Origin: Liolophura sinensis
Lineage: Eukaryota > Mollusca > Polyplacophora > Chitonida > Chitonidae
Reading direction: 5' to 3'
DNA length: 64,000 nt
NCBI RefSeq assembly: GCF_032854445.1
Contig: NC_088301.1
Coordinates: forward strand, 27,140,402-27,204,401
The notes under the pieces were generated by a model. That model was not told where the DNA came from, searched no databases, and saw only the letters and a list, made by a program, of their open reading frames with translations. This document shows positions 26,301 to 55,400 of this stretch, piece by piece. The position numbers and the translations under genes are program-made. How positions within the stretch are numbered: position 1 is the stretch's first letter; each line of letters begins with the position of its first letter.

Positions 26301-29300
26301 TGTTTAAGTAGTATTAAAGTAAAAATTCTTTGGGTAAGTTACAATTTTAGCGCAGTAAAAGTAAGTGCAAATTACTACAACAATATCCCTTGACTGACTA
26401 TGGGTTAGAGGTGAAATAAAGATATATAAGACGGCTTGTGCAAAATCAGTATGCAGACAGAAACGCGAGCAAATAGCAGAAGAAGCTGAGTACCTACCTG
26501 GCTACTAACAGACATCTGTGAGCTGTGCCAAACTTACAGACAGGAAGGTAATCCGACAACTCACTGAAACATGGCAGACAGGTGGGAAATTAATGAACGC
26601 AAAAAGTGATCAAATTAACCACAGTAATTATATACACGTGGCTTGCTTTTCTTATTTATAAAGCCAAACCGCTTTCCACCAAAACCATATCCCATTAACA
26701 TTATTCCTTTTATTCCAAGCTTCTACTGGAGATTAGGTAAACAAATCCAGATTTAAATCAAATTTTTTTCAAGAATTGCTCAAAATAATGTCTGTCAGTA
26801 AATATCAGATATACTTCGGAGGTTTGAAAAAGTTATAATGTGACCCGCTACATAAATGTCACAAACTGTCTCACCTATATGTATACTTAATGGTAACATG
26901 TGCACGGATGAGGCTGACATTTTGTGAAAGGTAATTATTTGGGCTATTCCAAAACAGCAAAAATTTGATTCACTTTGATTTAATTTTTATTTTTGTTTTA
27001 ATGAAATTCTATCTTTTTCTTTAAACATCTCCATTTTCCTTTCGCATATACAACAAACACTGTTATGTAAAGCTTTCTCCTAAGAAAATGTTATTTTCTT
27101 TCTTTAAGAGTTATTAATTTGATTGTTGATCATGTCAATAGAACTCTGGGATATTTCTCTCACATGAGGAGAAAGTTAGTCTTATGGGTGGAGTAAAACA
27201 AAACAGGCCTTGAAGGAAACCACTGCACCCTGACAGGCACTTAACAAATATCCCGACACAAAGCTGCAGCCAAGTATGTGAGATTTTTCTTATTGGCTAG
27301 AAAGACGTAATTGATCTCTTCAGGTTTTGTTTTAGTTTATATCTGTCCACAAGCTACATGTAAAAAGCTGAAAACCACAGTGTATATGTGTATGCGAACT
27401 CACTGATCCAGCACTTCCAGCTGTTGGTTAATGCTTTTCTCCAGCTCTGCATCACTCTCTTCCATTCCCTCCAGCTTCAGGGAAAACTCTGTTTTCCAAG
27501 GTTGGTGCTGCAGGAGACATTTCAACAACAACGCTGCCTTGGATGAGAGCAGGTGTGGGCAAAATACCGGTTCTGGTAAAAGGAAGAAATATATATATAT
27601 AAATAATACACTGAATTATGGCATATTTGTATGACATAGTTAATGTACAAATGGCATAGTTAATGTACAAATGACATAGTTAATGTACAAAATGTACGTA
27701 CAGACTTTCATCATGTTTTTCTAATACGAAAAAGCAAAATGGCAGTGTGAGGCTGAACTATAAATGAAAACTCTTTTCTAAATATGTAACGATTATTAGA
27801 AATTTATTAATTTCACGAGTTTTGAGATAGGATGTTACTACACCAGAGTGATGCCCTTTGTGATGTGACTTTGTTTCTTTACAAGACGGTGAGGTCAATC
27901 TGACACTCCTTGGCTGAGGTGGTATACAGCACATGCATACACACAACTAATTTTATTTATTTGATTGGTGTTTTACGCCGTACTCAAGAATATTTCACTT
28001 ATACGACGACGGCCAGCATTATGGTGGGTGGAAACCGGGCACAGCCTGAGGGAAACCCACGACCATCCGCAGGTTGCTGGCAGACCTTCCCACTTACGAC
28101 AACTAATTAAAGTTAGATCAATCATTTGAATTATATTCTTGCATGAGTTTGGGTGTCAAATATTGCAAAAATATTATCTTGAAAGTTTCAAACACTGTGT
28201 ACTCTACATTTATTTGTTCTTTCTATAATATGCCCTTCTCTAAATTTACATGTACGTGTACTTTTGTCTGTAGTGAAATTCAATACACCTGGCAGTTCCC
28301 TCTCCTCCACAGCTGCTGAGACACTGATCAGCCTGACACACCTGTAATCAGCATAACTCACCTGGCAGGTCCCTCTCCTCCACAGCTGCTGAGACAGTCA
28401 TCAGTCTGACATACCTGTAATCAGCATAACTCACCTGGCAGGTCTCTCTCCTCCACAGCTGATGAGACAGTCATCAGCCTGACACACCTGTAATCAGCAT
28501 AACTCACCTGGCAGGTCTCTCTCCTCCACAGCTGCTGAGACAGTCATCAGCCTGACACACCTGTAATCAGCATAACTCACCTGGCAGGTCTCTCTCCTCC
28601 ACAGCTGCTGAGACAGTCATCAGCCTGACACATCTGTAATCAGCATAACTCACCTGGCAGGTCCCTCTCCTCCACAGCTGATGAGACAGTCATCAGCCTG
28701 ACACACCTGTAATCAGCATAACTCACCTGGCAGGTCCCTCTCCTCCACAGCTGCTGAGACAGTCATCAGTCTGACACACCTGTAATCAGCATAACTCACC
28801 TGGCAGGTCTCTCTCCTCCACAGCTGCTGAGACAGTCATCAGCCTGACACACCTGTAATCAGCATAACTCACCTGGCAGGTCTCTCTCCTCCACAGCTGC
28901 TGAGGCAGTCATCAGCCTGACACACCTGTAATCAGCATAACTCACCTGGCAGGTCTCTCTCCTCCACAGCTGCTGGGACAGTCATCAGCCTGACACACCT
29001 GTAATCAGCATAACTCACCTGGCAGGTCTCTCTCCTCCACAGCTGCTGAGACAGTCATCAGCCTGACACACCTGTAATCAGCATAACTCACCTGGCAGGT
29101 CCCTCTCCTCCACAGCTGATGAGACAGTGATCAGCCTGACATACCTGTAATCAGCATAACTCACCTGGCAGGTCCCTCTTCTCTACAGCTGCTGAAACAG
29201 TGATCAGCTTGACACACCTGTAATCAGCATAACTCACCTGGCAGGTCCCTCTTCTCTACAGCTGCTGAAACAGTGATCAGCCTTACACACCTGTAATCAG

Positions 29301-32300
29301 CATAACTCACCTGGCAGGTCCCTCTCCTCTACAGCTGCTGAAACAGTGATCAGCTTGACACACCTGTAATCAGCATAACTCACCTGGCAGGTCTCTCTCC
29401 TCTACAGCTGCTGAGGCAGTGGTCAGTTTAAGATCCATCACACGAACACACCCATCCTCTGTGGTTATGACTGGTTTGTCAGAGCATGACCACTCAGCAT
29501 CAATAATACGAGACATCTCCTTTGGAGTCTTAATGCTATACAGACTTTTACCCTATAAGACAAAACACATGCTAGTATTTCAATAAAAATTCACTTTGTC
29601 ATACAATAGCATATTGCATTATAACCTTAACATAGCAAAAACCATGTTACACTTTTACTATGTTTACCCAAAAACCCTTTTACCCTAACACAGAGAAAAC
29701 AAATTTTCCCTTGTTCAGGCAAAAACCCTTTTACCCTAACACAGAGAAAACAAAACATATTACAAACTCAGCCAAGGGGGCCAAACATCCTATTGTTATA
29801 TAACTATAAAAGCAGATTCCCCTAGTTTTGATTCACATGTCAGGACAAAAATATGAGTCCTGTTTGGAGCACAGTCCTGCTAGTTTTGAACCCGATTCTC
29901 CAATCAATAGCGACTGATGGTCGAGTAGATTAACTACACCGAGCATGATAACTTTGCCCACCTCTACAGCATCCCAGATCTCCAGCCCACTACTGAACAT
30001 GGCCAGGAATCTCATGTTACCCCGACCTGGGGCAAACCGGATCTTCTTCACCCAGCCACGGTTTGTTGGGAAATATCTAGGTGATGAAACGAAGAGATAT
30101 TTGACATATAATATAATTAACAATTAATTTCATATCCCAAAACTGAAAGTAATGATGTTCATTACAGGACATAAAGTCAGTACACAAACCTTGAACAAAA
30201 TATGAGCATACCATTAGTGACTCATGGAAAGTCCAATTAGTCACATGGCTACTCAGTGACTCAAGGAAAGTCCAATTAGTCACATGGCTACTCAGTGACT
30301 CAAGGAAAGTCCAATTAGTCACAAGGCTACTCAGTGACTCAAGGAAAGTCCAATTAGTCACATGGCTACTCAGTGACTCAAGGAAAGTCCAATTAGTCAC
30401 ATGGCTACTCAGTGACTCAAGGAAAGTCCAATTAGTCACATGGCTACTCAGTGACTCAAGGAAAGTCCAATTAGTCACATGGCTACTCAGTGACCCAAGG
30501 AAAGTCCAATTAGTCACATGGCTACTCAGTGACTCAAGGAAAGTCCAATTAGTCACATGGCTACTCAGTGACTCAAGGAAAGTCCAATTAGTCACATGGC
30601 CACTCAGTGACTCAAGGAAAGTCCAATTAGTCACATGGCTACTCAGTGACTCAAGGAAAGTCCAATTAGTCACATGGCTACTCAGTGACCCAAGGAAAGT
30701 CCAATTAGTCACATGGCCACTCAGTGACTCAAGGAAAGTCCAATTAGTCACATGGCTACTCAGTGACTCAAGGAAAGTCCAATTAGTCACATGGCCACTC
30801 AGTGACTCAAGGAAAGTCCAATTAGTCACATGGCTACTCAGTGACTCAAGGAAAGTCCAATTAGTCACATGGCTACTCAGTGACCCAAGGAAAGTCCAAT
30901 TAGTCACATGGCCACTCAGTGACTCAAGGAAAGTCCAATTAGTCACATGGCTACTCAGTGACTCAAGGAAAGTCCAATTAGTCACATGGCCACTCAGTGA
31001 CTCAAGGAAAGTCCAATTAGTCACATGGCTACTCAGTGACTCAAGGAAAGTCCAATTAGTCACATGGCTACTCAGTGACCCAAGGAAAGTCCAATTAGTC
31101 ACATGGCCACTCAGTGACTCAAGGAAAGTCCAATTAGTCACATGGCTACTCAGTGACTCAAGGAAAGTCCAATTAGTCACATGGCCACTCAGTGACTCAA
31201 GGAAAGTCCAATTAGTCACATGGCTACTCAGTGACTCAAGGAAAGTCCAATTAGTCACATGGCTACTCAGTGACCCAAGGAAAGTCCAATTAGTCACATG
31301 GCTACTCAGTGACTCAAGGAAAGTCCAATTAGTCACATGGCTACTCAGTGACTCAAGGAAAGTCCAATTAGTCACATGGCTACTCAGTGACTCAAGAAAA
31401 GTCTAAAGAAGTTACAGGGCCACTCAGTGACTCCTGAGTAAAATTAGTTACACAGTGACTCAAGAAAAGTCAAAATAGTTACACAATTACTCAGTGACTC
31501 TTGCAAAGTCAAATTAGTTACTTAATTACTAAGTGACTCATGGAAAGCCAAACAAGATACATGGCTTCTCAGTGACTCAAGAAAAGTCAAATTAGTTACA
31601 CATTCACTCGGTAACTCATGGAAAGCCAAATTAGTTTCACAGCTACTCACTGACAAGATATGTGGTTAGTATCCCTCATACTGGGCTTGACCCTATCACC
31701 CTATATAAAGGTTAATGACCCCATAAATTTCCATATCCTGTCACTGAGTAACTGTGTAACTAATCTATCTCACAGAAGATCCATCAATACGGAGCGGAAG
31801 ACAAATTTTATCAGTTTTGACAGCCACACAAAGGGAGGTAACTTTCTCTGCATTCGCCAATGACACAGGCTGCAAGATTCAGAAATATACAAGGTGAAGC
31901 TGCACTAAAACGGTCACTGGTTTTACTATTTATTTACATTTATTTATTTGATTGAGGTTTTACGCTGTACTTAATGATATTTGACTGATACGACAGCGGC
32001 CAGAATCACGGTAGGAGGAAAGCAGGCAGAGCCCGGGAGGACACCCACGATCATCCGCAGGTTGCTCACTACTTATTTACATATTGGTCACTGTAATACT
32101 TTTGATTTTGTTTATTCAGGCTACTTACTTTGACTTTTTATTTTTCAGGTCCCAAATATTAATGTGTCCTTCAACATCTCCAAAGATGATCTGGTCACCT
32201 TTCCAGGCTATACTGTTCACCACAGCCATTCCAGGCTACAACAACAACAACAACACACAGCGATATACCCCTCGTACAAAACAATACCAAATGAGCCAAT

Positions 32301-34445
32301 GAGCACTGTAGGAAATCCTACTCCACTACACTTGAAGTATCTTAGTACATCTGTGTATTAAGGAATTTAGCTTTGAAGAAATAACCGATTTCTAATTTTT
32401 TTTTCAGCTGTATAATGGCTATATACGTGTTTAAAACTGCAATGTGTAAATTCACTCATGCATTCTTGTCTTTGTGGATGGTCCAATGAAATTCCAAATG
32501 TTTAAATACAAATGTTATGAAAAAAAACAAGAAATAAACCACTATTATGTCACCTTTGGCTAAAGTGTCATTCCTTAATTTGGAATCCCATTCAATTGCT
32601 TTTTCAAAAAACTTTTCACAATATCCTAGATACAATGTACATGTCATGTAGCACAGGTGTACCTTGAAAAGAGGTATAAATACAGGATGGAATCTGAAAA
32701 AAATGTTTTTGTGTTTCATTTAAGATGAGTTTGTGGTAGTTTGACGTACATGTCGCAAACTACACAAAGGTACAATGAAAGAGAAACCGCCTGATAAATC
32801 GCTGGGCTCACCTCTGCCGGTATTTTGCTGCTGTCCGTGATGGTGCTGCCCTCTACAATGAAGTGGTACACCACGGATTCAGAATCTGTGATGATGACAT
32901 GTTCCTTCGCTGGAGATCTTAGAGCGTTCTTGGAGTCGCTGAAACGGTAGAAAAACTTTTTCATGCAGATACAACTAGTGCACACTGTGAACACATGTTC
33001 TGGACTTTAAGGATAACTATAAAAACTGCAAACACCTTTTTGCCCTCTTTTTTATACTAGAAATCAAATATCCTTTAAATTCTAAGATGCAGGTGGGGGG
33101 GGCGGGGGGGGGGGGGAAACAGACTGAGCCATGATCTGTCACTCAACACTGGCTTTGTATGGACAACTGTGGTAATTTTCGGCTTTTTATTATCTTAATC
33201 TGAATTATTTTCCAATACTTGCTCAAAACTACATATTAATAAATTCATATAAAAGTTTCTCACAACCTGTTATTCCTACTTGCAAAAACCTGGGGCTCTC
33301 AATATTTTGGCAAACTGACATCGAACACTGCTTATTTAGAATCAGTTATAGATCTTTTCTAATTATTAAATCTGCAAACTGTACTATGTTAAAAAAAAAA
33401 ATTATTAAAAAGCAAGCCATGTTCAGTGGTTAAAAAACTTACCTGTTTGACATCTCACTATACAGCAGCATGATTGGATGGAAAAGCGACAGGTGTGAGT
33501 AATGATAAAGGGGTTTATGATATATCGGAGCCCTGGATCTACTGTACATGTCTGATAAGAATGGGCTGACAATGTAACAATGTCATGAGCTGCGTTTTAG
33601 GGGGTTTAGTTTGTTTGATTGGTGTTTTACGCTGTACTCAAGAATATTTCTCTCATACAATGGTGGCCAGCATTACAGTGGGAGGAAACCGGGCCAAGCC
33701 AGGGGGAACCCCAAGATCATCCGCAGGTTGCAGGTGGAACTTTCTATGTAAGACCAAAGAGGAGGCCAGCAGGAGCTGGACTTGAACTCACAGCGATCGC
33801 ATTAGTGAGAGGGTCGTGGGTCATTATGCTGTGCTAGCATGCTAGCCAGCAGGCCATTGAAGTCCCTTAGAGCCTTTAGTGGAAATGTTAAACTACAACA
33901 ATATGGTAGAAGTTTCCAAGAATGTTGTCAAACTCTTGCACATCTTCAAACTGAACTCTTCAAACGAGAGCACACAAGTACATGTATACAAAAATGACAA
34001 TGGCAAAATAAAGGATTCTTTCTCGGTTTCATCACACCATAATGTTTGCTGACATGAGAGTGAAATATTGAGTGCAGTGTAAAACACCAATCAAATACAT
34101 AATTAATAATAATCAAGCATTCCCTTTCTAAATATGCAAAACTTATTCATGAAGCAAGCTGTGATCAAACTTGATTGAAGTGGCCACAAAATGTACTTTC
34201 ACACAAAATCAAATTTTATCAAACTTTTAAATTTAAAAAAAAAATTTAATTTTTATCGATTTTATCAAAATAAAAGTAGTTACCGCAAAAAAAATCAACA
34301 GCCAATCAGAATCAAGAGTATATATTTACAAACCTTATGGGCTGATCCATAACTTAATATACTTGGGATGGGTGAGTTTTGAATATTTGATGCCAGGCTC
34401 CACATAGTGAACCTGCACACAACATTTTATGTAATTCCGAGAGGC

Positions 34446-34476
<31 letters not shown>

Positions 34477-37400
34477 AGTAGTATCCCTTGCTTTTGTCGA
34501 AGGTTGCGATTAAAATATCACCAAAGACAGTGTCAGAAGCCTGCTCTCTGCCATGCACTGCCCAGACAGACAGATTTTCTGGAAAATCTTCTGCTTTTTA
34601 CAGCCTGGTTTCAGAAGGCTTGTTAGGGCTTTTGGAAGTGGTAGAGTTCAAATCCAGTGGACAGAAATAATGTTCTAGAAGAAGAGGTTAAATTGAGTTG
34701 ACCTCGGATTTTACCTCCCAGAGGGGTCAGTGATGGCTGTAATGGCAGGTCCCGGGGGTGCCTCCTGGTTGGTGGGGGGACTCTCGTGTCTCTGTAACAG
34801 ACGTCTCTTCAGGGTCTTGATGGCATGTGAAGGGGACCACTCCTGTGACAACAATCAGGGTGAATTGAAATGAAACTTTTATTTACAGAGGGTATAAAAC
34901 TGTCAAATTTGCTTGTCACAGAAGCCCCTCTACAACAACATATGGATAAGCATGGACAGTTTATGCCAAATTTGGATTATTCCATTTGTGAAATTTGAAG
35001 AAATTCATTAACACAATAATGACAATGATGTTATAATATCACAATGTGAATTCAAAACATGGCAAGACCTGTGCACTCGGATTGTGGTCAAAATGTGTAA
35101 ATCGCACAGGTTGCTTTGTTGAGTAGCTCTGTATGGAACAGCCCTGGCATTTCAGGGTGAGGCGTTACTGAAGACTGTGACAACGCAATGTGATATTTTT
35201 ACAGCTGTTGCAGAGTGTTTGTGAGAAATTTACTGCATCACTGTTGTTGTGGCCTTCAGAATGATGACATGTCGTCCTCATGCTGTTATTCACAGCCTGC
35301 ACTCAAGTGAAATGGGCTGAATTCTATGTGAAATTCTATGCCATAGACTGCACTCAAGTGAAATGGGCTGAATTCTATGTGAAATTCTATGTCACAGCCT
35401 GCACTCAAGTGAAATGGACTGAATTCTATGTGAAATTCTAAGCCACGGACTGCACTCAAGTGAAATGGGCTGAATTCTATGTGAAATTCTGTCATAGACT
35501 GCACTCAAGTGAAATGGACTGAATTCTATGTGAAATTCTATGTCGTAGACTGCACTCAAGTGAAATGGGCTGAATTCTATGTGAAATTCTATGTCGTAGA
35601 CTGCACTCAAGTGAAATGGGCTGAATTCTATGTGAAATTCTATGTCATAGACTGCACTCAAGTGAAATGGGCTGAATTCTATGTGAAATTCTATGTCGTA
35701 GACTGCACTCAAGTGAAATGGGCTGCATTCTATGCGAAATTCTATGTCATAGACTGCACTCAAGTGAAATGGGCTGAATTCTATGTGAAATTCTATGTCA
35801 TAGACTGCACTTGAGTGAAATGGGCTCATTTCAGAGCCATCCTTCTTCTACATACAAATAAACATTTCTGCCACATTACCATTTTGATGGCATCAACGTT
35901 TAGTGCCTCCATCTTGTTTGCGCCCCACAGCCCAACATTTTTCACATTATGACATGTGTTAATGTATGTAACACAGTGTGGTAATTAAATCTACTGACAT
36001 CCATTACTACATTTTATTACATTTTTCACATTATGACATGTGTTCATGTATCTAACATATAGTGTGGTAATTAAATCTACTGACATCCATTACTACATTT
36101 TATTACACTTTTCACATTATGACATGTGTTAATGTATCTAACATACAGTGCCATAATTAAATCTACTGACATCCATTACTACATTTTATTGCACTTTTCA
36201 CATTATGACATGTGTTAATGTATCTAACATACAGTGCCATAATTAAATCTACTGACATCCATTACTACATTTTATTACACTTTTCACATTATGACATGTG
36301 TTAATGTATCTAACATACAGTGCCATAATTAAATCTACTGACATCCATTACTACATTTTATTACACTTTTCACATTATGACATGTGTTAATGTATCTAAC
36401 ATATAGTGCCATAATTAAATCTACTGACATCCATTAACTACATAATTATCTTAAAGGTGGAGAAAACATAAAAATGACATAAAGTTCAGATGAAAGAGTG
36501 CGAATATTATTCTTAAATGTTTATTCTGATTTTTCCTTAAGGAGAAAAAGACTCTTGTAAATAATTTGTGTATGGCAGGTATTTGGGACCACCTTTTGAT
36601 ATTTATAGTCTTTGTTTAATAATGTCATAAATAAATATTGTTGCACTATCACTGTTCTTTTCAGCTAACAAATGTATTAACCATCAATTTGGATCATATT
36701 TATATTTTTAATGTGTTCATAAATATTATCATAATTTAGGTTAAATGCATTTGTTTCGATATAAACAATAAATTTACATTCAAATAAATTTATCAGACAA
36801 GCATCATATAACATTATTATTCAACAAAGATATATACCAAAAGTTGGTCCCAAATACCCACCATACAAAAATATTTTCAAATACCCTTTTCTCTTGAAAA
36901 AAAAAATCTAAAAAAATATTAAAGATCATATTTGCAAAAAAGTTTTGACACTCTTTCATCTGATTTTGGCATCATTTTTATGTTTTCTTCTCCTTTAAAG
37001 CTGTTAATAAATAAATATCAAGAAATATGTCCCACGACTCAAGTTTTGGCATTGATATTTAAAGATACACATAAACCCAAACTGCTCATTTCGCATGTTG
37101 TCAGGCATGATGAACATGGTCGTTTACCAACAAACACAAATTAATCTGCCTGATGACATCATGATGTTTGCAACTTGCAAATTAGGTCTATTATTAAAAT
37201 GATCTAGATATAATCCTAAAACCTCACAGATTTGAAGAGTTTGGAAAATGTATTAGTCCAGTGAAAGGGGCTACATATGAACTTCACAGAAATGACAAGA
37301 TAGCCTGCTCAGATGAGATAACATTCATCTAACATGTCCTAAACATGTATTATGTCTGTGTCGGATTTTGTTGAGGATTTAGGCCAGTTCCGAGCATCTG

Positions 37401-40400: not shown

Positions 40401-43400
40401 CCACAACAGAGAAGCCGTGATCAAATTAATGACCATTTGCATACAGTGGCCCTGACATTTCTGTTTTTCACGGCCAATAAAACGGCAAGCTTTCAAAGTA
40501 ACACTTTTTACTCTTTGGCATTCTCACTTTCTCCATTGTTTTCCCCTATAAGTTACTGTAAATGGGGACAGGATTTCCAATGCAGAATTTCAAAGAAACA
40601 GATATTTAATGTAGCAAGCATGCTGCCGTTAGGTTAAAACAGACTGTTGAGTGAAAATTAGCACCCAGCTTCCGTGTAATGCGAGATCCCGCAACATTCC
40701 TGTTAAAAAAATGGCGGCCTTCTGAAATGCAAAAGTGACTTTTAGTGTAGGTATGGATCTGATATTTACTGAAACGTCATAATTGAAGTCATTCTTGGTA
40801 TAAATGGAAAATTTGTTTGGATCTGCGCTGATCGAATTCTTTGACAAAATTTGAAGATACAGCCTCTTTAATAAACCAGAGCTATGAGATTTACAGGTGA
40901 ATGGATCTTAAATGCCTGTAAATTGCAGATTTTAACATGACAAGACTTGCCAGGCCTAAGGGCAATGATAAAATGATGGATTTTTCACCTGATAATGGTA
41001 TAAAGGTGAGACATTCGTCAGGTTATACCATTATCAGGTGAGACATCCATCAGGTTATACCATTATCGGGGGCCTCCGTGGCTCAGTCGGTTAGCGCGCT
41101 AGTGCAGCGTAATGACCCAGGAGTCTCTCACCAATGCGGTCGCTCTGAGTTCAAGTCCACCTCATGCTGGCTTCCTCTTTGACTGTGTGTGGGAAGGTCT
41201 GCAGCAACCTGCGGATGGTCGTGGGTTTCCCCCAGGCTCTGCCCGGTTTCCTCCCACCATAACGCTGGCCGCCGTCATATAAGTGAAATATTCTTGAGTA
41301 CGGTGTAAAACACCAATCAAATAAATACCATTATCAGGTAAGACATTCTTCAGAGTATGCCATTATCAGGTGAGATATCCATCAGGTTATACCATTATTG
41401 GGTGAGACATCCTTCAGGCTGTACCATTATTGGGTGAGAAATCCATGACGTTAAGGCCCGTTCTCGTGATGCGATTTGTAGTACCAGCTTGTAGAATCGA
41501 CTTATAGTGTTTGACAAAAATCGCATGGAAAATGGTCACTTTTTCTGCTAAGGTACTGGCGTTTTTTGTTAACATGTTTGTCATGATGAGTTGCTGGCTG
41601 TAATTTACATGATGTGTAATTTCATGGTAGATCTTGACAGAGATAGTAAGCAAATGACAAATGACACAGTGAGAACAGGCCTTAACGTCATGGATTTCTC
41701 ACCCAATAATCGTACAGCCTGATGGATGTCTCACCCAATAATGGTATAACCTCATGGATGTCTCACCAGATAATGGTATAACCTGATGGATGTCTTACCT
41801 GATAATGGTATGAACTGATGGATGTCTCACCTGATAATGGTATAACCTGATGGATGTCTCACCTGATAATGGTGTAACCTGATGAATGTCTCACCTGATA
41901 ATGGTATAACCTGATGGATGTCTCACCTGATAATGGTATAAACTGATGGATGTCTCACCTGATAATGGTGTAACCTGATGGATGTCTCACCTGATAATGG
42001 TGTAACCTGATGAATGTCTCACCTGATAATGGTATAACCTGATGGATGTCACACCCAATAATGGTATAACCTGCTGGATGTCTCACATGATAATGGTATA
42101 AACTGATGGATGTCTCACCTGATAATGGTATGAACTGATGGATGTCTCACCTGACACTGGTATAACCTGATGGATGTCTCACCTGATAATGGTATGACCT
42201 GATGGATGTCTCACCTGATAGTGGTATAACCTGATGGATGTCTCACCTGATAATGGTATGACCTGATGGATGTCTCACCTGATAGTGGTATAACCTTATT
42301 GATGTCTCACCTGATAATGGCATGACCTGATGGATGTCTCACCTGATAGTGGTATAACCTTATTGATGTCTCACCTGATAATGGTATGACCTGATGAATG
42401 TCTCACCTGATAACAGTATAACCTGATGGATGTCTCACCCAATAATGGTATAACCTGATGGATGTCTCACTTGATAATGGTATGACTTGATGGATGTCTC
42501 ACCTGATAACAGTATAACCTCATGGATGTCTCACCCAATAATGGTATAACCTGATGGATGTCTCACCTGATAATGGTGTAACCTGATGAATGTCTCACCT
42601 GATAATGGTATAACCTGATGGATGTCACACCCAATAATGGTATAACCTGCTGGATGTCTCACATGATAATGGTATAACCTGATGCACGTCTCACCTTATA
42701 ATGGTATAACCTGACAAATGTCTCACCTGATACTGGTATAACCTGATGGATGTCTCACCTGATAATGGTGTAACCTGATGGATGTCTCACCTGATAATGG
42801 TGTAACCTGATGGATGTCTCACCTGATAATGGCATAACCTGATGGATGTCTCACATGATAATGGTATAACCTAATGGATGTCTCACCTGATAATGGTATA
42901 ACCTGATGGAGGTCTCACTCGATAATGGTATAACCTGATGCACGTCTCACCTTATAATGGTATAACCTGACGAATGTCTCACCTGATAATGGTGTAACCT
43001 TATGGATGTCTCACCTGATAATGGAGGTGTGAACACTGTACTCCTTCACCAGCTGACCACTAGACAGGTTGTAGATCTGTATATAGCCCGTCTGTGTACC
43101 TGTCCATGATACAAACAACAGTAAAGTATAAACACTGAAGATAATTTTATTATTTTATTTCAATGTTATACATTCACTTCTACAATGGGAGTCGGTTTTA
43201 TGGGTTTATCTACTGTAATTCATGCCAGAAGAAGGTATTAGGTTAACAAATTTAACCAAGCAATTGGTAGTTTTATCTTTTTGCAGTGTTCAAACATATG
43301 GACCTTTGGAAAGTGACATTTTGCAAAATGTGTGATGTATGGATATCTCCACCATATTTGTCAAAGGTCTTGAACACGTGTTCACGAGTAAGCTAGCGCT

Positions 43401-46400
43401 AACAGCCACACCAGTGACCCTCAACTGCTAAATGTCACCGAGTCTACACAAGGGGAAAGCAAATGTCCCACAAACTCCCTGTCCTTGAACTCGCATTCCA
43501 GTGACTGGAAGACTACTTGGCAATAACCAATGCCCCACTTTGTCATATAAAACATATATGTACACATATTGAATAATATAACTGCTGCAGGAAATGTGTC
43601 CCAAACTACATCTTACGTTGACAGCGCTGGATTTGTTTTATATATTTATTTGATTGTTGTTGTAATGCCATAATCAAGAATTTTTTTCTCCTACAGGTCA
43701 GGTTTTTGGTTTAGGACACCAGGGACAGCACTGGGCAGAGAGACATACCCAATGCTAACAGTGGTTGGAAGTAACTCCAATTCTTTGTGGTCATTGGTGG
43801 GCACATCCGCAGGACAGACACATGACCCATCACTCCGCTGATCAGACCGGTCAGCAGAAGTTTCATCACTACAGTGTGCTTAGGCTGAATGGCCACACTG
43901 TCAGACATGGTGTTCTGGGACTGGCCAATCAAATCTGCCATGGTCAGCCTTGGATATGGTACGTCACTCAGGATTGGTAGTTTAGCCATGGCTTCTGGTT
44001 TGTTGTTGATGGTCAGCTGACTGAAGTCTGTCAGAGACACCCCTGGTGTGTACAGTGGGGAAGAGAAGGCCTGGTTGTTCACATTGTTATCCTGGAACAG
44101 ACAAGATTAGCTGACATGAGGAGAGAGTCGTTAGTTGACAGAGAGACTTACTGATAATATAACTGATTCATGATGCAAAATGCATTAACTTTCTGAGATT
44201 CATACTGTCAGGTCTCTGAACTAGGTTCTCAAGTTACACTTAAGCATGAATGGAATACATGTGAAGTAATGGTTCCTGCCACACGGCCACATCTAAGTCA
44301 GCGGTCAAGGTCACATGATCTGACAGCTCATCAGAAAGTGCAGTTAAATATGCAAATTTTAGGGATGACATTATAATTCATGGGGATTGCATAATTCCAT
44401 GTTTACATTTTAACGAAGACTTTCTACTGAAAGTTATCCACATGACAGGAACAAACAAATACACCTACCATAACATTAATTGTCTTAATTTCCCAGAAGA
44501 TGACCCGGCTGTCACTCATAATAAGGGCCACTCCCCTTTCTGTGACTGGCGACATGGCCACGCCCAGCACCTTACTGTGTTTGGTTAATCTCATAGGGTC
44601 TGACTGACACCTCAGGTCATAGGCCACATCCAAGGACACCTGAGGGGGTGTGTCATCTGAAAATTGATAGCCAGTAATATTAAATGTATTCAGCTGAAGT
44701 GAGCAAATGGTTTCATATACTATAAAGTCATCAGACTGGATTAGTTGCAGTCAAATGAAGAAAAAGGAACACGTAAAACACAAGACATATTCTCCTCTCT
44801 TTATACGGTAATTATATGGCCTTTTCGACCAACTGAGCAGCACTCGTGGTCGAAGTCCTCAAGGGAAAGTTGACAAAACAGGGTCAGGGGCTGTAGGGGG
44901 AATCTGAAGTTGAACCGTGGGTGCTTCATGTTTCTCACCCATGTAACTATAGCTAATATAGAAAGTCTGTAGGTGTCAACTGGTCAGCGATGAGCATGGC
45001 TACACTCTCGCCAGTGAAGGGGCGACGTAGACTTGGAGTGGTTAGTCTGAGACAAACACACAAGGCAAAAATGTAGACCCATTCGCTCAGGTGATTTCCC
45101 AAGTCACGCTGTCTCTTACGTAATATCATTTGTTCAATGCTGGCAATGGTGGACTGCGAAACACTGTAATAGCCTATTACACTGCTTTATTTATTATAAA
45201 AGCTCATGTGTAAGAGCTTGCTTAAGTGGCATTTAGAAGTCGGTGAGGAGGTACACTGGACAAGGCATTCTTATGGATGTACAACTTCTTGGTTTATTTA
45301 ACACAACGTTTCGATGCAGATACTAGCATCGTTATCAAGTGAATGACATCAAAATTACTACTGCGCTTATATATAGCAAGAGATGCAAATGTCAACAGAT
45401 AAAACAAAAAAGAGGGTAAACAGTCCTCAGGGGATTAAGGTGTCCTGGGGTGGGTGTTGGCGTACTGACTAGGCTCGGTGGGGTTCCTGAGCGGTTTGGA
45501 GGATTAGCAGATCATAAGCTGAGGGGAGGTAGATGCCGTGATCTCTGTTCAGGCTGGGCTTTAATCTCTTAATCTGGATGGCTTCCTGTAGTTTTCGTTT
45601 CTTCCAATGGGGCTGATTCATGTTCAGTGTCCTGACTGTATTCCAGTTGATGATGTGGGATGTACTGATGATTGGTGTTCTTTAATTCTGGTTTGAAGCG
45701 GTCTGCCTGTTTCACCTATGTAGGAGTTGTTGCAACTGCATTTTAATTGGTAGACAACTCCTTTGGGTGGCTGGGGTTTGGTTGGTGTCTTCTTTCCTGT
45801 GGCATGTAGGTGGGTCTTTAGTGTAATCAGGCTTCTGATTCTTCTTGGTTTTGGGTGGGTGGTTGGACTTGTAGTGGATGTACTGGTCGGAGTGGGTCGG
45901 TTTGCGGTACACTGTGGTTTGGAGAGCGTCTGCTGTTCTCTTCACGTGGACATCTAGGAATGGTATTTGTTGATCTTTCTCAGTTTCCATGGTGAATTTG
46001 ATGCGTTGGTGTTGTGAATTTAGGTGGTCAAGTAAGGCAGATGGATCTTGGTGGTGTTGAAGTGCGACGAAGGTATCGTCCACTTTTCGCATCCAACAGA
46101 TGGGCTGGATGGGTGACGTGGCTAAGGCTTTGTTCTCTAGTTCAGTTAGGTAGATCTCGGAGACAATCGGTGATAGTGGGGATCCCATGGGGAGGCCATG
46201 GATCTGCTCATAAATTGTGTCACCCCAAGTGAAGTAAGTGGATGACAGGCAACAGTCCAGTAGGCTGATGATGTTATCTGGGGATAGGGATGTCGTCGGT
46301 GGTGTGGCTGTTATCTTGTCTCTTATCACATCTAGGGCTTGGCTGGTTGGGACATTGGTAAATAGGTCAACAACGTCGTAGCTCACAAGTTTGCAGGGTT

Positions 46401-49400
46401 CATTGATCTGACATATTTTGTAACAGAAGTCAGCTGAGTCTTTGATAAAGGAGTCGGCAGCCTTAGACCATAGTGATAGTAGTTTCGTGAGGTACTGGGC
46501 AGTGTTATAGAAGACAGTTCCTCTGGAGCATATCAGTAACCTGGCTTTTACAGGGTCCTTGTGGATTTTGATGGTTGCACGGGCATACGGTGCACGGGGG
46601 TGTTGCACTGTTAACTTTTGTTGGATTTCAGGTGTGATCTCACCACTGGTTTTGAGTTGGTTCAGGAGGGATCTGTGTTGCCGGTCAAACTTGTTGGTGG
46701 GGTCAGTTTTCAGGGTTCGGTATGTGGACTGGTCTGTTAGTAAGTTGTCTACCAGTTTGTTAAAATCTGTTTTGTCAAGAATGGCTGCGGCTTTTCCTTT
46801 ATCAGCTGGTGCTATGGTTATGGACTTGTCTTTCTTCAGTTCGACCAGGGCTCTGCTTTCTTCTTTACCCGCTGGGTAACCTGAATCACCCGCTGGGTAA
46901 CCTGAACCACCCGCTGGGTAACCTGAACCACCTGCTGGGTAACATGAACCACCCGCTGGGTAACCTGAACCACCCGCTGGGTAACCTGAACCACCCGCTG
47001 GGTAACCTGAACCACCTGCTGGGTAACCTGAACCACCCACTGGGTAACCTGAACCACCTGCTGGGTAACCTGAACCACCCGCTGGGTAATCTGAACCACC
47101 TGCTGGGTAATCTGAACCACCCGCCATAATCAGTCAAACTTTCTTGTTCAGGGTTTCCAAGATTTTTTTTTTGTCCTTTCATCAGATTGAACACAATATT
47201 GTTAAAAACGAGCCACTGTGCTGCTCTGACTCAACGTTACAAGTCTCTTCTTGTAAGAAAAACCCTCTTTGTTTGAACCAAAACATACATATGTCTCGAT
47301 CCTCGTGATTTAACAATAGCATTCTTTGTGTGGAAACTTAGGAGAGGAAGGGTCAATCTAAATTAAAACATTCACCGATGCAGTGTAGCTGACAGTTGGA
47401 GAAGCAGTTGTTAGCTTGCCAGTTTGACAGGAAAATGCTTTGAGACAGTTTCAGAATTTACAGGTACGTAAACAACTGTGACTTGATACTTTCTTCACTT
47501 TAATTCATGGGTAGAAATAAAGGTACTGTCAAGCCTGTACCCATTGGACTACTTTCATGTCACCAAGCATGTGCACTGCCTTCCCGTGCTTGTCTAGCCA
47601 CCAGTCGACTTACTTATTTATTTACTTGATTGGTGTTTTACGCTGTACTCAAGAATTTTTCACTTATATGATGGAATACAGCATTATGGTGGGAGGAAAC
47701 TCATACTGGTGGTGGACAAGTGGGTGAGGGAAACCTGAATACACACGGCCCACGAATTACAGCCTTGTGCGTCATACTGGTGGTGGACAAGTGGGTGAGG
47801 GAAACCTCACTGCACAAGGCCCACGAGTTACAGCCTTGTGCATCACACTGGTGGTGGACAATTGGGTGAGGGAAACCTGAATACACACGGCCCACGAGTT
47901 ACAGCCTTGTGCGTCATACTGGTGGTGGACAAGTGGGTGAGGGAAACCTGAATACACACGGCCCACGAATTACAGCCTTGTGCGTCATACTGGTGGTGGA
48001 CAAGTGGGTGAGGGAAACCTCAATGCACAAGGCCCACGAGTTACAGCCTTGTGCATCATACTGGTGGTGGACAAGTGGGTGAGGGAAACCTGAATGCACA
48101 CGGCCCACGAGTTACAGCCTTGTGCGTCATACTGGTGGTGGAGAAGTGGGTGAGGGAAACCTCAATACACGAGGCCCACGAGTTACAGCCTTGTGCGTCA
48201 TATTGGTGGTGGACAAGTGGGTGAGGGAAGCCTCAATACACATGGCCCACGAGTTACAGCCTTGTGCGTCATACTGGTGGAGGACAAGTGGGTGAGGGAA
48301 ACCTCAATACACGAGGCCCACAAGTTACAGCCTTGTGCGTCATACTGGTGGTGGACAAGTGGGTGAGGGAAACCTCAATCCACGAGGCCCACAAGTTACA
48401 GCCTTGTGCATCATACTGGTGGTGGACAAGTGGGTGAGGGAAACCTCAATACACGAGGCCCACGAGTTACAGTCTTGTGCGTCATACTGGTGGTGGACAA
48501 GTGGGTGAGGGAAACCTCAATACACGAGGCCCACGAGTTACAGCCTTGTGCGTCATACTGGTGGTGGACAAGTGGGTGAGGGAAACCTCAATACACGAGG
48601 CCCACGAGTTACAGCCTTGTGCGTCATACTGGTGGTGGACAAGTGGGTGAGGGAAACCTCAATACACGTGTTACAGCCTTGTGTGTAGTACTGGTGGTGG
48701 ACAAGTGGGTGAGGGAAACCTCAATACACGAGGCCCACGAGTTACAGCCTTGTGCGTCATACTGGTGGTGGACAAGTGGGTGAGGGAAACCTCAATACAC
48801 GTGTTACAGCCTTGTGTATGGTACTGGCGGTGGACAAGTGGGTGAGGGACACCTCAATACACGAGGCCCACGAGTTACAGCCTTGTGCGTCATACTGGTG
48901 GTGGACAAGTGGGTGAGGGAAACCTCAATACACGAGGCCCACGAGTTACAGCCTTGTGCGTCATACTGGTGATGGACAAGTGGGTGAGGGAAACCTCAAT
49001 ACACACAGCCCACGAGTTACAGCCTTGTGCGTCATACTGGTGGTGGACAAGTGGGTGAGGGAAACCTCAATACACGTGTTACAGCCTTGTGTGTAGTACT
49101 GGTAGTGCTTAAAGGAAAAGACCTCTAAAAATCGTAGATTTTCATAAATCCCACCATAGTTTTTACATATTTGAAAGACTCTTGAAAGAGTGAAATGAAA
49201 GCATTTTTATGCCTGCTTTTCAGTTGTCTGTATGATGAACCTTACTTCGTATTTTAGCTTTCTTTTACTTTAATGAACATAAAACTGCGCAAATGGCCCT
49301 GCAAGTGACATCATCCACTTTCTGTCACCATGGTAACGGCATAGTTTAAGGACTAAACGCTTGCAGTTACACTTTTCCCCCAAATGGGTGATTTTGCCAC

Positions 49401-52400
49401 TTAATATATAACAAGGTAGATGGAGGATAAGGATAGCAAAGGCAACATAGATATAATCCTACCAAATGCTCCAGTGCCTTCAGAGGCTGGCGTGCAGATG
49501 ACGTTGGTCTTCCTCCTCACACGTACAGTCACACTACCGTTGTCATGGAGACACATCAGCGCATCTCTCTGTCTGCAGGACAGTATCTGAAAAAATAGCG
49601 CAACAGAGTTAGTGAGATAATATTGATGAATTTTAGCACTAAACTAGCCAGACACATGATCTACAAATGTACTGTAAATGACCTAAAATTTTGTCCATGG
49701 CCAAGCTGCTCTGCCTGATTCTGAGATATCTACTGATGTTAACAAGGCATTCAGGGAATACTAGTACCTCACCTGATTGAACAGTTTGCTCATCATGTGA
49801 TACATTCAAATATTGGCCTTTAAAACAAAAAACGAGAGTGATTGACACTGTCATACACAGATATTATCCTCTAATTACATAGTGCTAGGATCTTGCCATT
49901 AAATCAACAAAAAAGAACAAAATTATTATACTGTCACAACTATGACTGTTTATCGTATGCATAGGAATTGCAGGGCAGTGACTTTGTATGTTATGGAGTT
50001 GTAAATTATTGTGGTGGTAAAATACATTATGGGAGTTTGGTGCACAACTTTACCACAGGGGTCTGCGATATGCAAATCGCAAACTGCAATTGTCAATCTA
50101 TGTACTATGGGAGGCAATTGCATTCCTGTGACTAGCTGAGCAAAGACTTCCTTGGTCTTTGCAGACTGCTACCCACGGTTGGCTATCTGTGTACTATGGG
50201 TGGCCATTGCAACCCTATCACTGGCCAAAACTTTAAACAAACTGGACACTGACACCAACAGCATCTGATTCAATACCTCTCCCTGATTGGTAAGTGAGCT
50301 AAAAAGAACTTTTGTGGTTGTTTGAAAAGTAAGAAAATATTCTCTTCAAAAAATATAAGATTCAGTACCAAAAGTAATATCTTATGACATTTGTTTGCCT
50401 GTGGAAAAGCACATTATTAGCAAAACCAAATACTCAGTTCTCAACACATAGGACAATTCACACAAATACAAGCGGCTGTCCCACCTGTCTGAAGGGTGAG
50501 CCAGTCCTCTCTATGCGACACCAAATACTCAGTTCTCAACACATGGGACAATTCAAACAAATACAGCGGGCTGTCCCACCTGTGTGAAGGCTGAGCCAGT
50601 CCTCTCCATGGGACACCAAATACTCAATTCTCACACACGGGACTATTCTCACAAATACAGCGGGCTGTCCCACCTGTGTGAAGGCTGAGCCAGTCCTCTC
50701 CATGGGACACCAAATACTCAGTTCTCAACACATTGGACTATTCTCACAAATACAGCGGGCTGTCCCACATGTCTGAAGGCTGAGCCAGTCCTCTCCATGG
50801 GACACCAAATACTCAGTTCTCAACACATTGGACTATTCTCACATATACAGCTGTCCCACTTGTGTGAAGGCTGAGCCAGTCCTCTCCATGAGACACCAAA
50901 TACTCAATTCTCAACACAAGGACTATTCTCACATATACAGCTGTCCCACTTGTGTGAAGGCTGAGCCAGTCCTCTCCATGGGACACCAAATACTCAATTC
51001 TCAACACAAGGACTATTCTCACAAATACAGCGGGCTGTCCCACCTGTGTGAAGGCTGAGCCAGTCCTCTCCATGGGACACCAAATACTCAATTCTCAACA
51101 CACGGGACTATTCACACAAATACAGCGGGCTGTCCCACCTGTCTGAAGGCTGAGCCAGTCCTCTCCATGAGACACCAAATACTCAATTCTCAACACAAGG
51201 ACTATTCTCACAAATACAGCGGGCTGTCCCACCTGTGTGAAGGCTGAGCCAGTCCTCTCCATGGGACACCAAATACTCAATTCTCAACACACGGGACTAT
51301 TCTCACAAATACAGTGGGCTGTCCCACTTGTGTGAAGGCTGAGCCAGTCCTCTCCATGGGACACCAAATACTCAATTCTCAACACACGGGACTATTCACA
51401 CAAATACAGCGGGCTGTCCCACTTGTATGAAGGGTGAGCCAATCCTCTCCATGGGACACCAAATACTCAATTCTCAACACATTGGACTATTCACAGGAAT
51501 ACAGCGACTATCCCACCTGTGTGAAGGCTGAGCCAGTCCTCTCCATGGGACACCAAATACTCAGTTCTCAACACATAGGACACTTCACACAAATACAGCG
51601 GGCTGTTCCACCTGTGTGAAGGCTGAGCCAGTCCTCTCTATGCGACACCAAATACTCAATTCTCAACACATGGGACAATTCAAACAAATACAGCGGGCTG
51701 TCCCACCTGTGTGAAGGCTGAGCCAATTCCTCTCCATGGGACACCAAATACTCAGTTCTCAACACATAGGACAATTTTCACAAATACAGCGGGCTGTCCC
51801 AACTGTCTGAAGGGTGAGCCAGTCCTCTCCATGGGACACCAAATACTCAGTTCTCAACACATAGGACTATTCACACAAATACAGCGGGCTGTCCCACCTG
51901 TGTGAAGGCTGAGCCAGTCCTCTTCATGGGACCCCAAATATTCAGTTCTCAACACATAGGACAATTCACACAAATACAGCGGGCTGTCCCACCTGTATGA
52001 AGGCTGAGCCAGTCCTCTCCATTGGACACCAAATACTCAGTTCTCAACACATAGGACAATGCACACAAATACAGCGGGCTGTCCCACCTGTGTGAAGGCT
52101 GAGCCAGTCCTCTCCATGGGACACCAAATACTCAGTTCTCAACACATAGGACAATTCACACAAATACAGTGCGCTGTCCCACCTGTGTGAAGGCTGAGCC
52201 AGTCCTCTCCATGGGACACCAAATACTCAGTTCTCAACACATGGGACTATTCTCACAAATACAGCGGGCTGTCCCAACAGTCTGAAGGCTGAGCCAGTCC
52301 TCTCCATGAGACACCAAATACTCAATTCTCAACACACGGGACTATTCTCACAAATACAGTGGGCTGTCCCACCTGTGTGAAGGCTGAGCCAGTCCTCTCC

Positions 52401-55400
52401 ATGGGACACCAAATACTCAATTCTCAACACATGGGACTATTCTCACAAATACAACGGGCTGTCCCACTTGTGTGAAGGCTGAGCCAGTCCTCTTCATGGG
52501 ACACCAAATACTCAATTCTCAACACATGGGACTATTCTCACAAATACAGTGGGCTGTCCCACCTGTGTGAAGGCTGAGCCAGTCCTCTCCATGGGACACC
52601 AAATACTCAGTTCTCAACACATAGGACAATTCACACAAATACAGCGGGCTGTCCCACCTGTCTGAAGGCTGAGCCAGTCCTCTCCATGGGACACCAAATA
52701 CTCAGTTCTCAACACATAGGACAATTCACACAAATACAGCGGGCTGTCCCACCTGTGTGAAGGCTGAGCCAGTCCTCTCCATGGGACACCAAATACTCAA
52801 TTCTCAACACATGGGACTATTCTCACAAATACAGTGGGCTGTCCTACCTGTGTGAAGGGTGAGCCAGTCCTCTCCATGGGTATCGTGCCCACTGTCTGAT
52901 TGATCTCCAAGTCCAGGATGAGCAGTTCCCGGGGGTAGAGCAGGATCAGATGGTGACGGCAAGCCTGGTGATACACCAGCTGTATACACTCATTCAGGTT
53001 CACACTCTCCTCCACTGACTTGTTGGAGCTGGAAGATTGAATGATTAGTACTTAATGTACCTGCCTGAGAATTTTCTTTTACATGACAGCAGTATGGTTT
53101 ACTGGCTGAGGAAACCTACATTGAGGTAAGTGCTTGGAATAAACCACCAACCTTTGGCAAGTACTAGGCCAAAAACGAAAGTAAGAAACAAAGTGATTTA
53201 TTATTAGATTGTGTGATCCACTGCAGTGCATTATTTTGGCAGATTTTGCGCATCACCAGTTTGGGAACCAAAAGTAGGAAATACATGTATAATGACATTA
53301 ACTCCTGCTGTGCCCTATCCATCTGATCCAACCAAAATTGAAAGACAGAAAGACAAAAATCTGCTTTTTCTTTGTATGAAGGTTTCGTGGAGATATTTAT
53401 GTAACACTTCTTTTAGCTCTGTTTTATACTGCATCCCAAAGATCTATGAAACTATCAAATTAAATCAGCTCTTGAACCTTTTGGATGGGCATCCAGACTT
53501 TTATCCAACATCTGACACTCATCAGGCTTACGTAGGAATTTTGATTTGATTCATATCTAAACACATTATTTCATTTATTTATTTGCGTGGTGTTTTACGC
53601 CGTACTCAAAAATATTTCACTTAGAAGACGGCAACCAGTATTACAGTGGGAGGAAACCGGCCAGAACCAGGAGGAAACTCACAACCATCCACAGGTTGGT
53701 GCCAGACCTTCTCAGGTACAGCCGGAGAGGAAGTCAGCATGAGCTGGACTTGAACTCACAGCGACCACATTGGTGAGAGGCTTCTGGGCCTTTGCACTGT
53801 GCTGGCGTGCAAGACACCTCTGTCACAGAGGACCCCATATGCATATAGAGGAAAATGGCCAGAACCTGAGGGAAACCCACATTCATCTGCAGGTTGCTGG
53901 CAGACCATCCCACGTATGGCCAGAGAGGAGTCAAGGAAGAGCTGGACCGCAATGGTGAGTGCCTCTAGTGTCATCATAATGGCGTGCTAACCACAGAGGC
54001 CTTGTAAAGATATGTCCCATACAACTTTGAGTGTGATACCGTTACAGGTACGTGAGTATGTATATGTACTTACCTTTGTTTCACTTCTCCCACGAGTATT
54101 CGGCTCACCCTTTTAGCTAAAGTGCTCGACTCTCTCCTCTCTGCATTGTTGTTCACATTTCCTGTATCAAAATTAGACATGAAGGATAACGCTTCACGGC
54201 AATCCTGGTGCTTTGTAAATTTGTTACATGTACCTCTGCCAAGGAGATTACTTTTTTTTTCAGGCTATTTATTCAATTTTATTTCACTTTTTTGACTTAC
54301 AAGATGGCAGTCAGCATTGTGGGTGGTACCTGGAATAAACCATCTACCGTAAATCGGGCAGAGCTTAGCCGACGATTTCAAAAAGATTATCCCATGATTC
54401 CTTGTGTGTGACTGTGATTCTTGGTAAGTGGACACAGCTGGAGGGGGGGCAGTCGGGGGGGGGGAGGGGCAGTGGGGGGTCTCAGGAGTGTGTTCACAGG
54501 ATTGCACGTGCCTGTGACCAGACCAGTAAACCTGTTCACGCTTCACTGAACATTCAACTGTTAGCTCTAGTAGAATCGCTACACAGCTACTGCCAGAATG
54601 CACATCTCATGTACATTGTGCCGAGTGATTCGTGCCAAAACGCTTCAGTGAGAAATGAAATGTTAGCACAAGTACCATCTACATATCTTCTACCAGAATG
54701 CATGTTTCACGCATGGTCTGCAACAGCATGTCGTGCAGACTGAGGTTAGACGGTGGACCAGTAACAAATAGGCCTACACTGATAAGTGTGCAGGTCGTTT
54801 AAAACAATCACTGAACAACAAATATGTGTCTAAAGTCAATAATTACCCATATGCGCTTAAGAAGCTAATTTTCAAAATACAAATACAACACTTCACTGCT
54901 CCGATTTACCGCGATTAGGTCCAGCTTTGCCTGTGTTAGAGTAGGAAAATCCACTTTCACGCAATTTGCTTGAATCAGAACTCATGATTACACCTTACCA
55001 GTGTAGGCCTTGACGACCTAACAATAGCACTCATTATATGGAAATTATAGAGGAGAAAGTGCCAAACTATAACCTATTAAGTATTCAGATATAAACGGCT
55101 GAGTTGTACTGATATCATGGGTAATCCCAACCTTTTGCACAGCTTTGGGTATAGTCACTGAAGTTTCAACATAGTTTAGGAGACCCGTCAATCACAGCAT
55201 AGACCCGATCCAAACATCTGATGTTTTGACAATTGTTTTTAATTCTACTTGCTGTAAATGGGTTACGTGTCTTGATTACATGGCTTTACTGAAATGGTTT
55301 AGCACCAAAATCCAAAACGGTCTCAGGAAAAATTACTGAACATGCATTTCACTGGGCACGTGGCTGTATGTAAATTAATGGACCTCCGTCTGCTAGTCTA

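What the first reader, a model, noticed from the sequence alone, without database searches (positions are those of the whole stretch)
28275..52880. Recurrent minisatellites seeded at exon-intron junctions: exon tail plus 5' splice site is the repeat unit
In three separate WDR11 introns (after exons 8, 12 and 21) the tandem unit begins inside the exon, crosses the AG|GT donor and continues into the intron. The last unit of each array is the functional exon end. Unit lengths (95, 32, 73 bp) and sequences are unrelated, so these are independent events with the same geometry. ROCK exon 7 has the same arrangement with only two copies. Tandem duplication spanning AGGT is a proposed route to new introns (the tandem genomic duplication model). 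Here it seems to run away into arrays, giving tens of decoy splice donors. A mechanism linked to transcription, R-loops or donor sequence is conceivable but is inference.
Basis: partly seen in the sequence, partly recalled or inferred. Interest (0 to 1): 0.88.

Follow-up and report, generated by a model that had tools for sequence, protein, structure and literature searches.

The report
Tandem repeats grown across exon ends
In this animal genome, short tandem duplications that covered the end of a gene's coding segment have grown into long repeats carrying dozens of spare splice signals; the pattern is real and recurs in other genes, but it is more likely one outcome of a genome rich in such repeats than a mechanism aimed at splice sites.

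Summary
In three WDR11 introns, 95-, 32- and 73-bp arrays begin 33, 10 and 37 nt inside the exon, cross the donor and run into the intron; 79 of 81 decoy copies keep GT. Correction: the functional exon end is the first unit in the transcript, not the last. The ROCK case shares at most 4 exonic nt.

The geometry recurs: of 16 arrays elsewhere, chosen for repeated AGGTGAGT, 7 start at exons with homology support (Raptor, OGDH, Mot1/BTAF1 twice and others), 2 probably do, 3 do not, 4 are unresolved.

Donor-specific seeding is not shown. In ROCK two arrays cross acceptors; over 52 introns 3 donors and 2 acceptors lie in local repeats. Genome-wide the tandem donor motif is twofold over one control per occurrence, and the two gene bodies hold two- to threefold more arrays per kb than their flanks.

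Best reading: untargeted minisatellite growth, with selection sparing the exon-side copy. A mild donor preference stays open. No RNA evidence.

The parts
50425..52880 (-). 95-bp minisatellite, 26 copies, crossing the donor of a WDR11 exon; 25 decoy donors, 23 with GT
   Evidence: TRF, unit table, 33 exonic nt
52848..53028 (-). WDR11 exon whose last 33 nt are the first unit of the 95-bp array
   Evidence: PDB WDR11 alignment to the last codon; splice signals
41683..43024 (-). 32-bp minisatellite, 42 copies, crossing the donor of a WDR11 exon; 41 decoys, all with GT
   Evidence: TRF, unit table, 10 exonic nt
43015..43099 (-). WDR11 exon ending in the 32-bp unit
   Evidence: Open frame, splice signals and gene order; PDB gave only other WD40 proteins among those shown
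28286..29420 (-). 73-bp minisatellite crossing the donor of a WDR11 exon; 15 decoys, all with GT
   Evidence: TRF, unit table, 37 exonic nt
29384..29552 (-). WDR11 exon whose last 37 nt are the first unit of the 73-bp array
   Evidence: PDB WDR11 alignment; splice signals
5086..5209 (+). 62-bp duplication, two copies, starting 4 nt inside a ROCK exon and duplicating its donor
   Evidence: TRF; equal donor scores at 5089 and 5151
4873..5089 (+). ROCK exon ending at the duplicated donor
   Evidence: tblastn with a recalled ROCK1 probe; splice signals

Best explanation
These are locus-specific minisatellites whose founding tandem duplication happened to straddle an exon-intron junction. This genome forms minisatellites at a high rate, about 0.4 per kb in the two genes studied. 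A duplication inside an exon usually breaks the protein; one across a junction leaves an intact exon end against the exon body and pushes the extra copies into the intron, so it is tolerated and can grow, by slippage or unequal exchange, to tens of copies. Shown: the geometry, its recurrence at unrelated exon ends, its presence at acceptors, no repeats at exon midpoints, and no special conservation of donor columns inside the arrays. Inferred: that the copy next to the exon body is the one spliced (exon definition), that decoys are mostly unused, and that founding duplications land without regard to splice sites.
For: Six of 32 arrays in ROCK and WDR11 cross a junction, 4 donors and 2 acceptors, with mirror geometry at acceptors. 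Local repeats at 3 of 52 donors, 2 of 52 acceptors, 0 of 54 exon midpoints, 491 of 2500 random intronic points or 2.7% with each array counted once. Donor columns vary as other columns do: 0 against a mean of 4.3, 24 against 23.1, 6 against 6.5 minor cells. Of 12 AGGTGAGT outside arrays in 264 kb, 5 are donors of the two genes, a share like the 7 to 9 of 16 AGGTGAGT arrays found at exon ends. Gene bodies hold 0.41-0.42 arrays per kb, flanks 0.14-0.21. All four window donor cases meet an in-frame stop before donor 2, so only the exon-side donor gives the normal protein.
Against: Uniform landing predicts 1.21 donor crossings and 4 are seen (P 0.031; either kind 6 against 2.42, P 0.029). The tandem donor motif is 2.0-fold over its control per occurrence. 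The density comparison rests on two genes, and with a stricter array filter the contrast runs from 1.4- to 3-fold. On C1 the in-frame stop comes only after donor 2 in L029, L033, L035 and L037 and was not met in L042, so inner donors are not always ruinous. No RNA data show which donor is used.
Confidence: 0.66

Rival explanations
1. Donor-seeded growth: something about 5' splice sites (the G-rich donor sequence, pausing, R-loops or U1 binding on nascent RNA) promotes tandem duplication there, and the arrays then run away.
For: 3 of 3 junction-crossing arrays in WDR11 are at donors; 4 donors against 1.21 expected over two genes, P 0.031; tandem AGGTGAGT 1261 against 479 matches while singles are 24,391 against 18,803; 13 donor-motif against 5 control-motif arrays in C1:0-10.45 Mb; donor arrays are longer (16-42 copies) than the two acceptor arrays (2.8 and 4.6).
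Against: Acceptor arrays exist; 3 of 52 donors and 2 of 52 acceptors do not differ; the twofold excess has one control motif and is matched by array density in gene bodies; survival could favour donors without any seeding bias.
Confidence: 0.17
2. Selection asymmetry without seeding bias: junction arrays arise equally at both ends, but upstream decoy acceptors are harmful and are purged or mutated, while downstream decoy donors are harmless and accumulate.
For: In the 79-bp acceptor array 3 of 4 decoys read CAAG where the functional copy reads CAG, in the 57-bp one 1 of 2 reads CCTG; donor decoys keep GT in 79 of 81.
Against: Two acceptor arrays only; the CAAG copies probably share one change and still hold an AG one base on; lengths could differ by chance.
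Confidence: 0.1
3. The decoys are kept for use: inner donors are spliced to make variant exon ends or to tune expression through nonsense-mediated decay.
For: Decoys stay intact; L037 and L042 units are multiples of 3 and read on past donor 2.
Against: Donor columns are not more conserved than other columns; window units 95, 32, 73 and 62 are not multiples of 3 and stop before donor 2.
Confidence: 0.04
4. Assembly error: collapsed or invented copies at exon ends.
For: ROCK 5' exons occur twice 9.7 kb apart and the 264 kb hold 200 N, so the assembly is not perfect.
Against: Copies differ from each other, with variants spread along the arrays; the geometry recurs in unrelated genes on another contig.
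Confidence: 0.03

Closest known systems
Human IFI6 / 6-16 minisatellite with multiple splice donors (Nucleic Acids Res 1995; only its title seen, in the reference list of PMC2572611; the paper itself is not held; details recalled)
   Same: A minisatellite at an exon end whose units each carry a splice donor
   Different: Short units and one gene there (recalled); here units of 31-96 bp at many unrelated exon ends, with up to 37 or more exonic nt per unit; donor use in RNA not known here
Internal tandem repeats at exon-intron boundaries in human segmental duplications (PMC2812944, passages)
   Same: Minisatellites across exon-intron boundaries change gene structure; 27 intron modifications after manual check, about 30-bp units repeated about 4 times
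   Different: There: young primate gene families, with transcript support and altered splicing; here: conserved genes such as WDR11, Raptor and OGDH, tens of copies, no transcript data
[quoted passage not shown] passages)
   Same: Tandem duplication of a stretch holding AGGT; fission yeast shows a multi-copy 24-nt case, potato a copy of an intron-exon structure
   Different: Here the duplicated stretch spans a donor plus intron sequence, and no new intron is seen in WDR11

Membership tests
Minisatellite | head-to-tail array of units of about 10-100 bp | tested here: met
   TRF periods 95, 32, 73 with 26.0, 41.9, 15.5 copies
Minisatellite providing multiple splice donors (IFI6 type) | array straddles an exon end and each unit carries a donor | tested here: met
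   GT in 16/16, 42/42, 24/26 units; 37, 10, 33 exonic nt
Minisatellite providing multiple splice donors (IFI6 type) | several of the donors are used in transcripts | not testable with these tools
   No RNA data for this genome
[quoted passage not shown]
   Two WDR11 exon ends read AG|GTGAG and one AG|GTAGG
[quoted passage not shown]
   Units hold 22-62 nt of non-exonic sequence and the introns run 714, 1412 and 839 bp beyond the arrays
[quoted passage not shown]
   The genome tool holds no relatives of this genome
   4 donors, 2 acceptors in 52 introns; 3 and 2 without TRF
   P 0.031 by uniform seeds; 5.8% of donors against 19.6% raw or 2.7% array-collapsed intronic points; 2.0-fold over one control motif

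The most novel reading that the evidence does not exclude
Exon 3' ends are preferred birthplaces of tandem arrays in this genome, through a process tied to transcription or to the donor sequence itself, so that a noticeable share of strong donors carry rows of 10-40 near-identical decoys among which the spliceosome must choose by position alone.
Probability: 0.17. Interest if true: 0.85.

Novelty: new variant of a known kind. Interest (0 to 1): 0.52.

Why it matters
Even without a special seeding mechanism these are natural experiments: up to 42 near-identical donors, many with duplicated exonic context, stand in a row in conserved genes, so position must tell the right one from the decoys. 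That makes exon definition against intron-proximal choice testable in vivo and gives splice predictors a hard test. The arrays also show a standing supply of junction-crossing duplications from which new exon ends or introns could arise, and a donor/acceptor difference in decoy decay, if it holds, would measure how harmful each kind of decoy is.

Tried and rejected
Donor hot spot from WDR11 alone: nominally significant, weaker once ROCK and its two acceptor arrays were added.

Selection on decoy donors: donor columns neither more conserved nor more decayed than other columns (full-length units only, 15, 41 and 18).

Dispersed repeat family: a query from the 73-bp array matched its own locus only; the other two arrays were not searched.

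Rfam on the window: one tRNA-like hit at 1312-1382, unrelated.

A 50-kb stretch of C1: 12 arrays and only weak coding predictions; predictions more than half inside arrays were dropped, so it cannot test junction crossing.

L034 gave no Pfam and no PDB match, L035 no Pfam match; both stay 'probable' on open frame, splice signals or codon score alone. L044 was first taken as 'no exon', but its repeat runs off the stretch read, so it counts as unresolved.

Paper searches for this geometry; among the listed titles and abstracts I saw no closer match than those under Closest known systems. PMC6304787 (passages) was irrelevant.

Rows dropped before counts: TRF periods under 10; overlapping TRF rows merged; ROCK upstream of -24622 left out because of a suspected false duplication; ROCK exons between -17439 and -10527 may be missed; a few junctions had a second candidate site.

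Not obtained: further control motifs (AGGTAAGT, GGTAGATG) and an acceptor motif (TTTGCAGG); those searches did not complete.
Full report
What is there. TRF on the window gives, after merging and dropping periods under 10, 21 arrays (raw rows). WDR11 lies on the minus strand; its gene model was built from open frames and splice signals, and translated exons match WDR11 chains in the PDB. Three arrays cross a donor. In transcript orientation exons end ...CTGCCAG|GTGAGT (29384)...ATTATCAG|GTGAGA (43015) and ...TTCACACAG|GTAGGA (52848), and after each the same exon tail plus donor returns about every 73, 32 or 95 bp. The exonic part is 37, 10 and 33 nt. GT survives in 15 of 15, 41 of 41 and 23 of 25 decoys. 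For the 95-bp array the PDB alignment runs to the last codon: the exon tail is ordinary WDR11 sequence, so the exon is the source and the array derived. 'Last unit' is true only in plus-strand coordinates. The ROCK duplication at 5086-5209 shares 4 nt with the exon.

Coding consequences. Units of 95, 32, 73 and 62 bp are not multiples of 3, and reading past donor 1 meets a stop 48, 1, 11 and 56 nt on, before donor 2. So only the exon-side donor gives the normal protein there (inference; no RNA). Elsewhere this is mixed: on C1 the stop comes before donor 2 in L036, L041 and L043, after it in L029, L033, L035 and L037, and none was met in L042, whose 81-bp unit stays open and might itself be coding; L034 stops at once but its unit was not well aligned.

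Is it specific to donors? The window is part of a held genome of 609,464,459 bases in 632 contigs; I read 100 kb on each side. TRF gives 72 arrays of period 10 or more in 264 kb. A ROCK probe placed upstream ROCK exons. Two arrays there cross ACCEPTORS in mirror geometry, the last unit being the functional exon start: 79 bp x 4.6 at window -2453..-2092 (L013:7547-7908), exon start -2110; and 57 bp x 2.8 at -22193..-22034 (L011:7807-7966), exon start -22049, in the kinase domain. Among 32 arrays in 52 introns of the two genes, 4 cross a donor and 2 an acceptor; with uniform landing 1.21 of each are expected (P = 0.031 for donors, 0.34 for acceptors, 0.029 together). Without TRF, asking whether the 30 nt around a point recur within 400 nt at 80% or more: 3 of 52 donors, 2 of 52 acceptors, 0 of 54 exon midpoints, 491 of 2500 random intronic points; weighting each array as one unit lowers the last to 2.7%. 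Junctions are at most mildly enriched and donors cannot be told from acceptors.

Genome-wide. Three AGGTGAGT spaced 26-56 nt gave 1261 matches against 479 for the same motif read backwards (one search gave the same two totals from the other side). Singles are 24,391 and 18,803: per occurrence 5.2% and 2.5%, a 2.0-fold difference. Matches in one array are not independent: by hand, the listed donor matches fall in 13 arrays within C1:0-10.45 Mb; the listed control matches in 15 arrays over C1:0-93.7 Mb, 5 of them below 10.45 Mb and one of those the same array as a donor one (both lists are capped). The singles listed for the C1 plus strand, to 2.98 Mb, are by hand about 56 separate loci, 5 with three or more copies. 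Arrays per kb are 0.42 and 0.41 in the ROCK and WDR11 spans against 0.21 and 0.14 in the flanks; with period 26-95 and at least 3 copies 0.14 and 0.24 against 0.10 and 0.08. Location may thus give the excess, but this rests on two genes and one control motif. AGGTGAGT stands at 6 of 52 donors, and of 12 AGGTGAGT outside arrays in the 264 kb 5 are donors of the two genes.

Recurrence. I read the upstream edges of 16 AGGTGAGT arrays on C1: the 13 above (L029-L041, about 1 kb each) and 3 of the multi-copy loci (L042-L044). Seven start at an exon with homology support: L029 ankyrin (PF12796), L033 iron-hydrogenase-like (PF02906; NAR1/CIAO3 by recall), L036 and L037 two exons of a Mot1-type ATPase (PDB 7zb5 and 6g7e, 'helicase-like protein'; Mot1/BTAF1 by recall; alignments reach the last residue), L041 2-oxoglutarate dehydrogenase (7wgr, to the last residue), L042 antistasin (PF02822; donor uncertain as said) and L043 Raptor (5h64, to the last residue). 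L034 and L035 look like exon ends without database support. Three show no exon at the edge: L030, L040, and L039, where an apparent exon ends about 45 nt before the array. Four are unresolved: L031, L032, L038, L044. The motif chose these arrays, so this shows recurrence, not a rate.

Signs of selection. Donor columns in the WDR11 arrays vary as other columns do. At acceptors, 3 of 4 decoys in one array read CAAG and 1 of 2 in the other CCTG where the functional copies read CAG. If upstream acceptors are harmful and downstream donors harmless, acceptor arrays should stay short and decay while donor arrays grow; the few cases fit (2.8 and 4.6 copies against 15.5-41.9), but CAAG copies probably share one change and keep an AG one base on.

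What it works like and what it is. It works like the human IFI6 minisatellite with multiple donors (title only; details recalled) and the repeats at exon-intron boundaries in human segmental duplications (PMC2812944, passages). It is not, in WDR11, intron creation by tandem duplication (PMC3443670, PMC4974935, PMC3629103, passages): the units contain intron sequence and the introns run 714, 1412 and 839 bp beyond the arrays.

Verdict. A real, recurrent geometry in conserved genes; the most economical cause is untargeted minisatellite growth plus selection that spares the exon-side copy. A mild donor preference stays open.

Noticed in passing
window 41325-41479 and 41657-41811: The 32-bp array ends in an inverted continuation: arms of 155 nt, 89% complementary, 177 nt apart; further inverted units lie at 41004-41067.
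   Followed up: partly
window -47572 and -37843 (L009 and L010), also -44294 and -34591: ROCK 5' exons occur twice about 9.7 kb apart with identical translations; the 264 kb hold 200 N. Possibly a false duplication in the assembly.
   Followed up: no
window 45715-47133, minus strand: Long open frame with a reverse transcriptase match (PF00078), Penelope-like by recall, with a 21-bp array at its upstream end (46867-47124).
   Followed up: partly
window 17362-18012: A 48-bp array stops 22 bp short of the acceptor of the last WDR11 exon found, without crossing it.
   Followed up: no
L042:451-901 (C1:1.309 Mb): 81-bp repeat, a multiple of 3, reads open through an antistasin-like frame: coding array and donor array cannot be told apart.
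   Followed up: no
L036 and L037 (C1:4.18-4.19 Mb): Two unrelated donor-crossing arrays about 12 kb apart at two exons of one Mot1-type gene, as in WDR11.
   Followed up: no
window 1312-1382: tRNA-like match (RF00005, 31.6 bits) at the head of a SINE-like stretch; similar stretches are frequent in these introns.
   Followed up: no
window coordinates 97789-99053 (right flank, L017), minus strand: Long coding-like segments that by eye recall a DNA polymerase of a large transposon; not searched.
   Followed up: no
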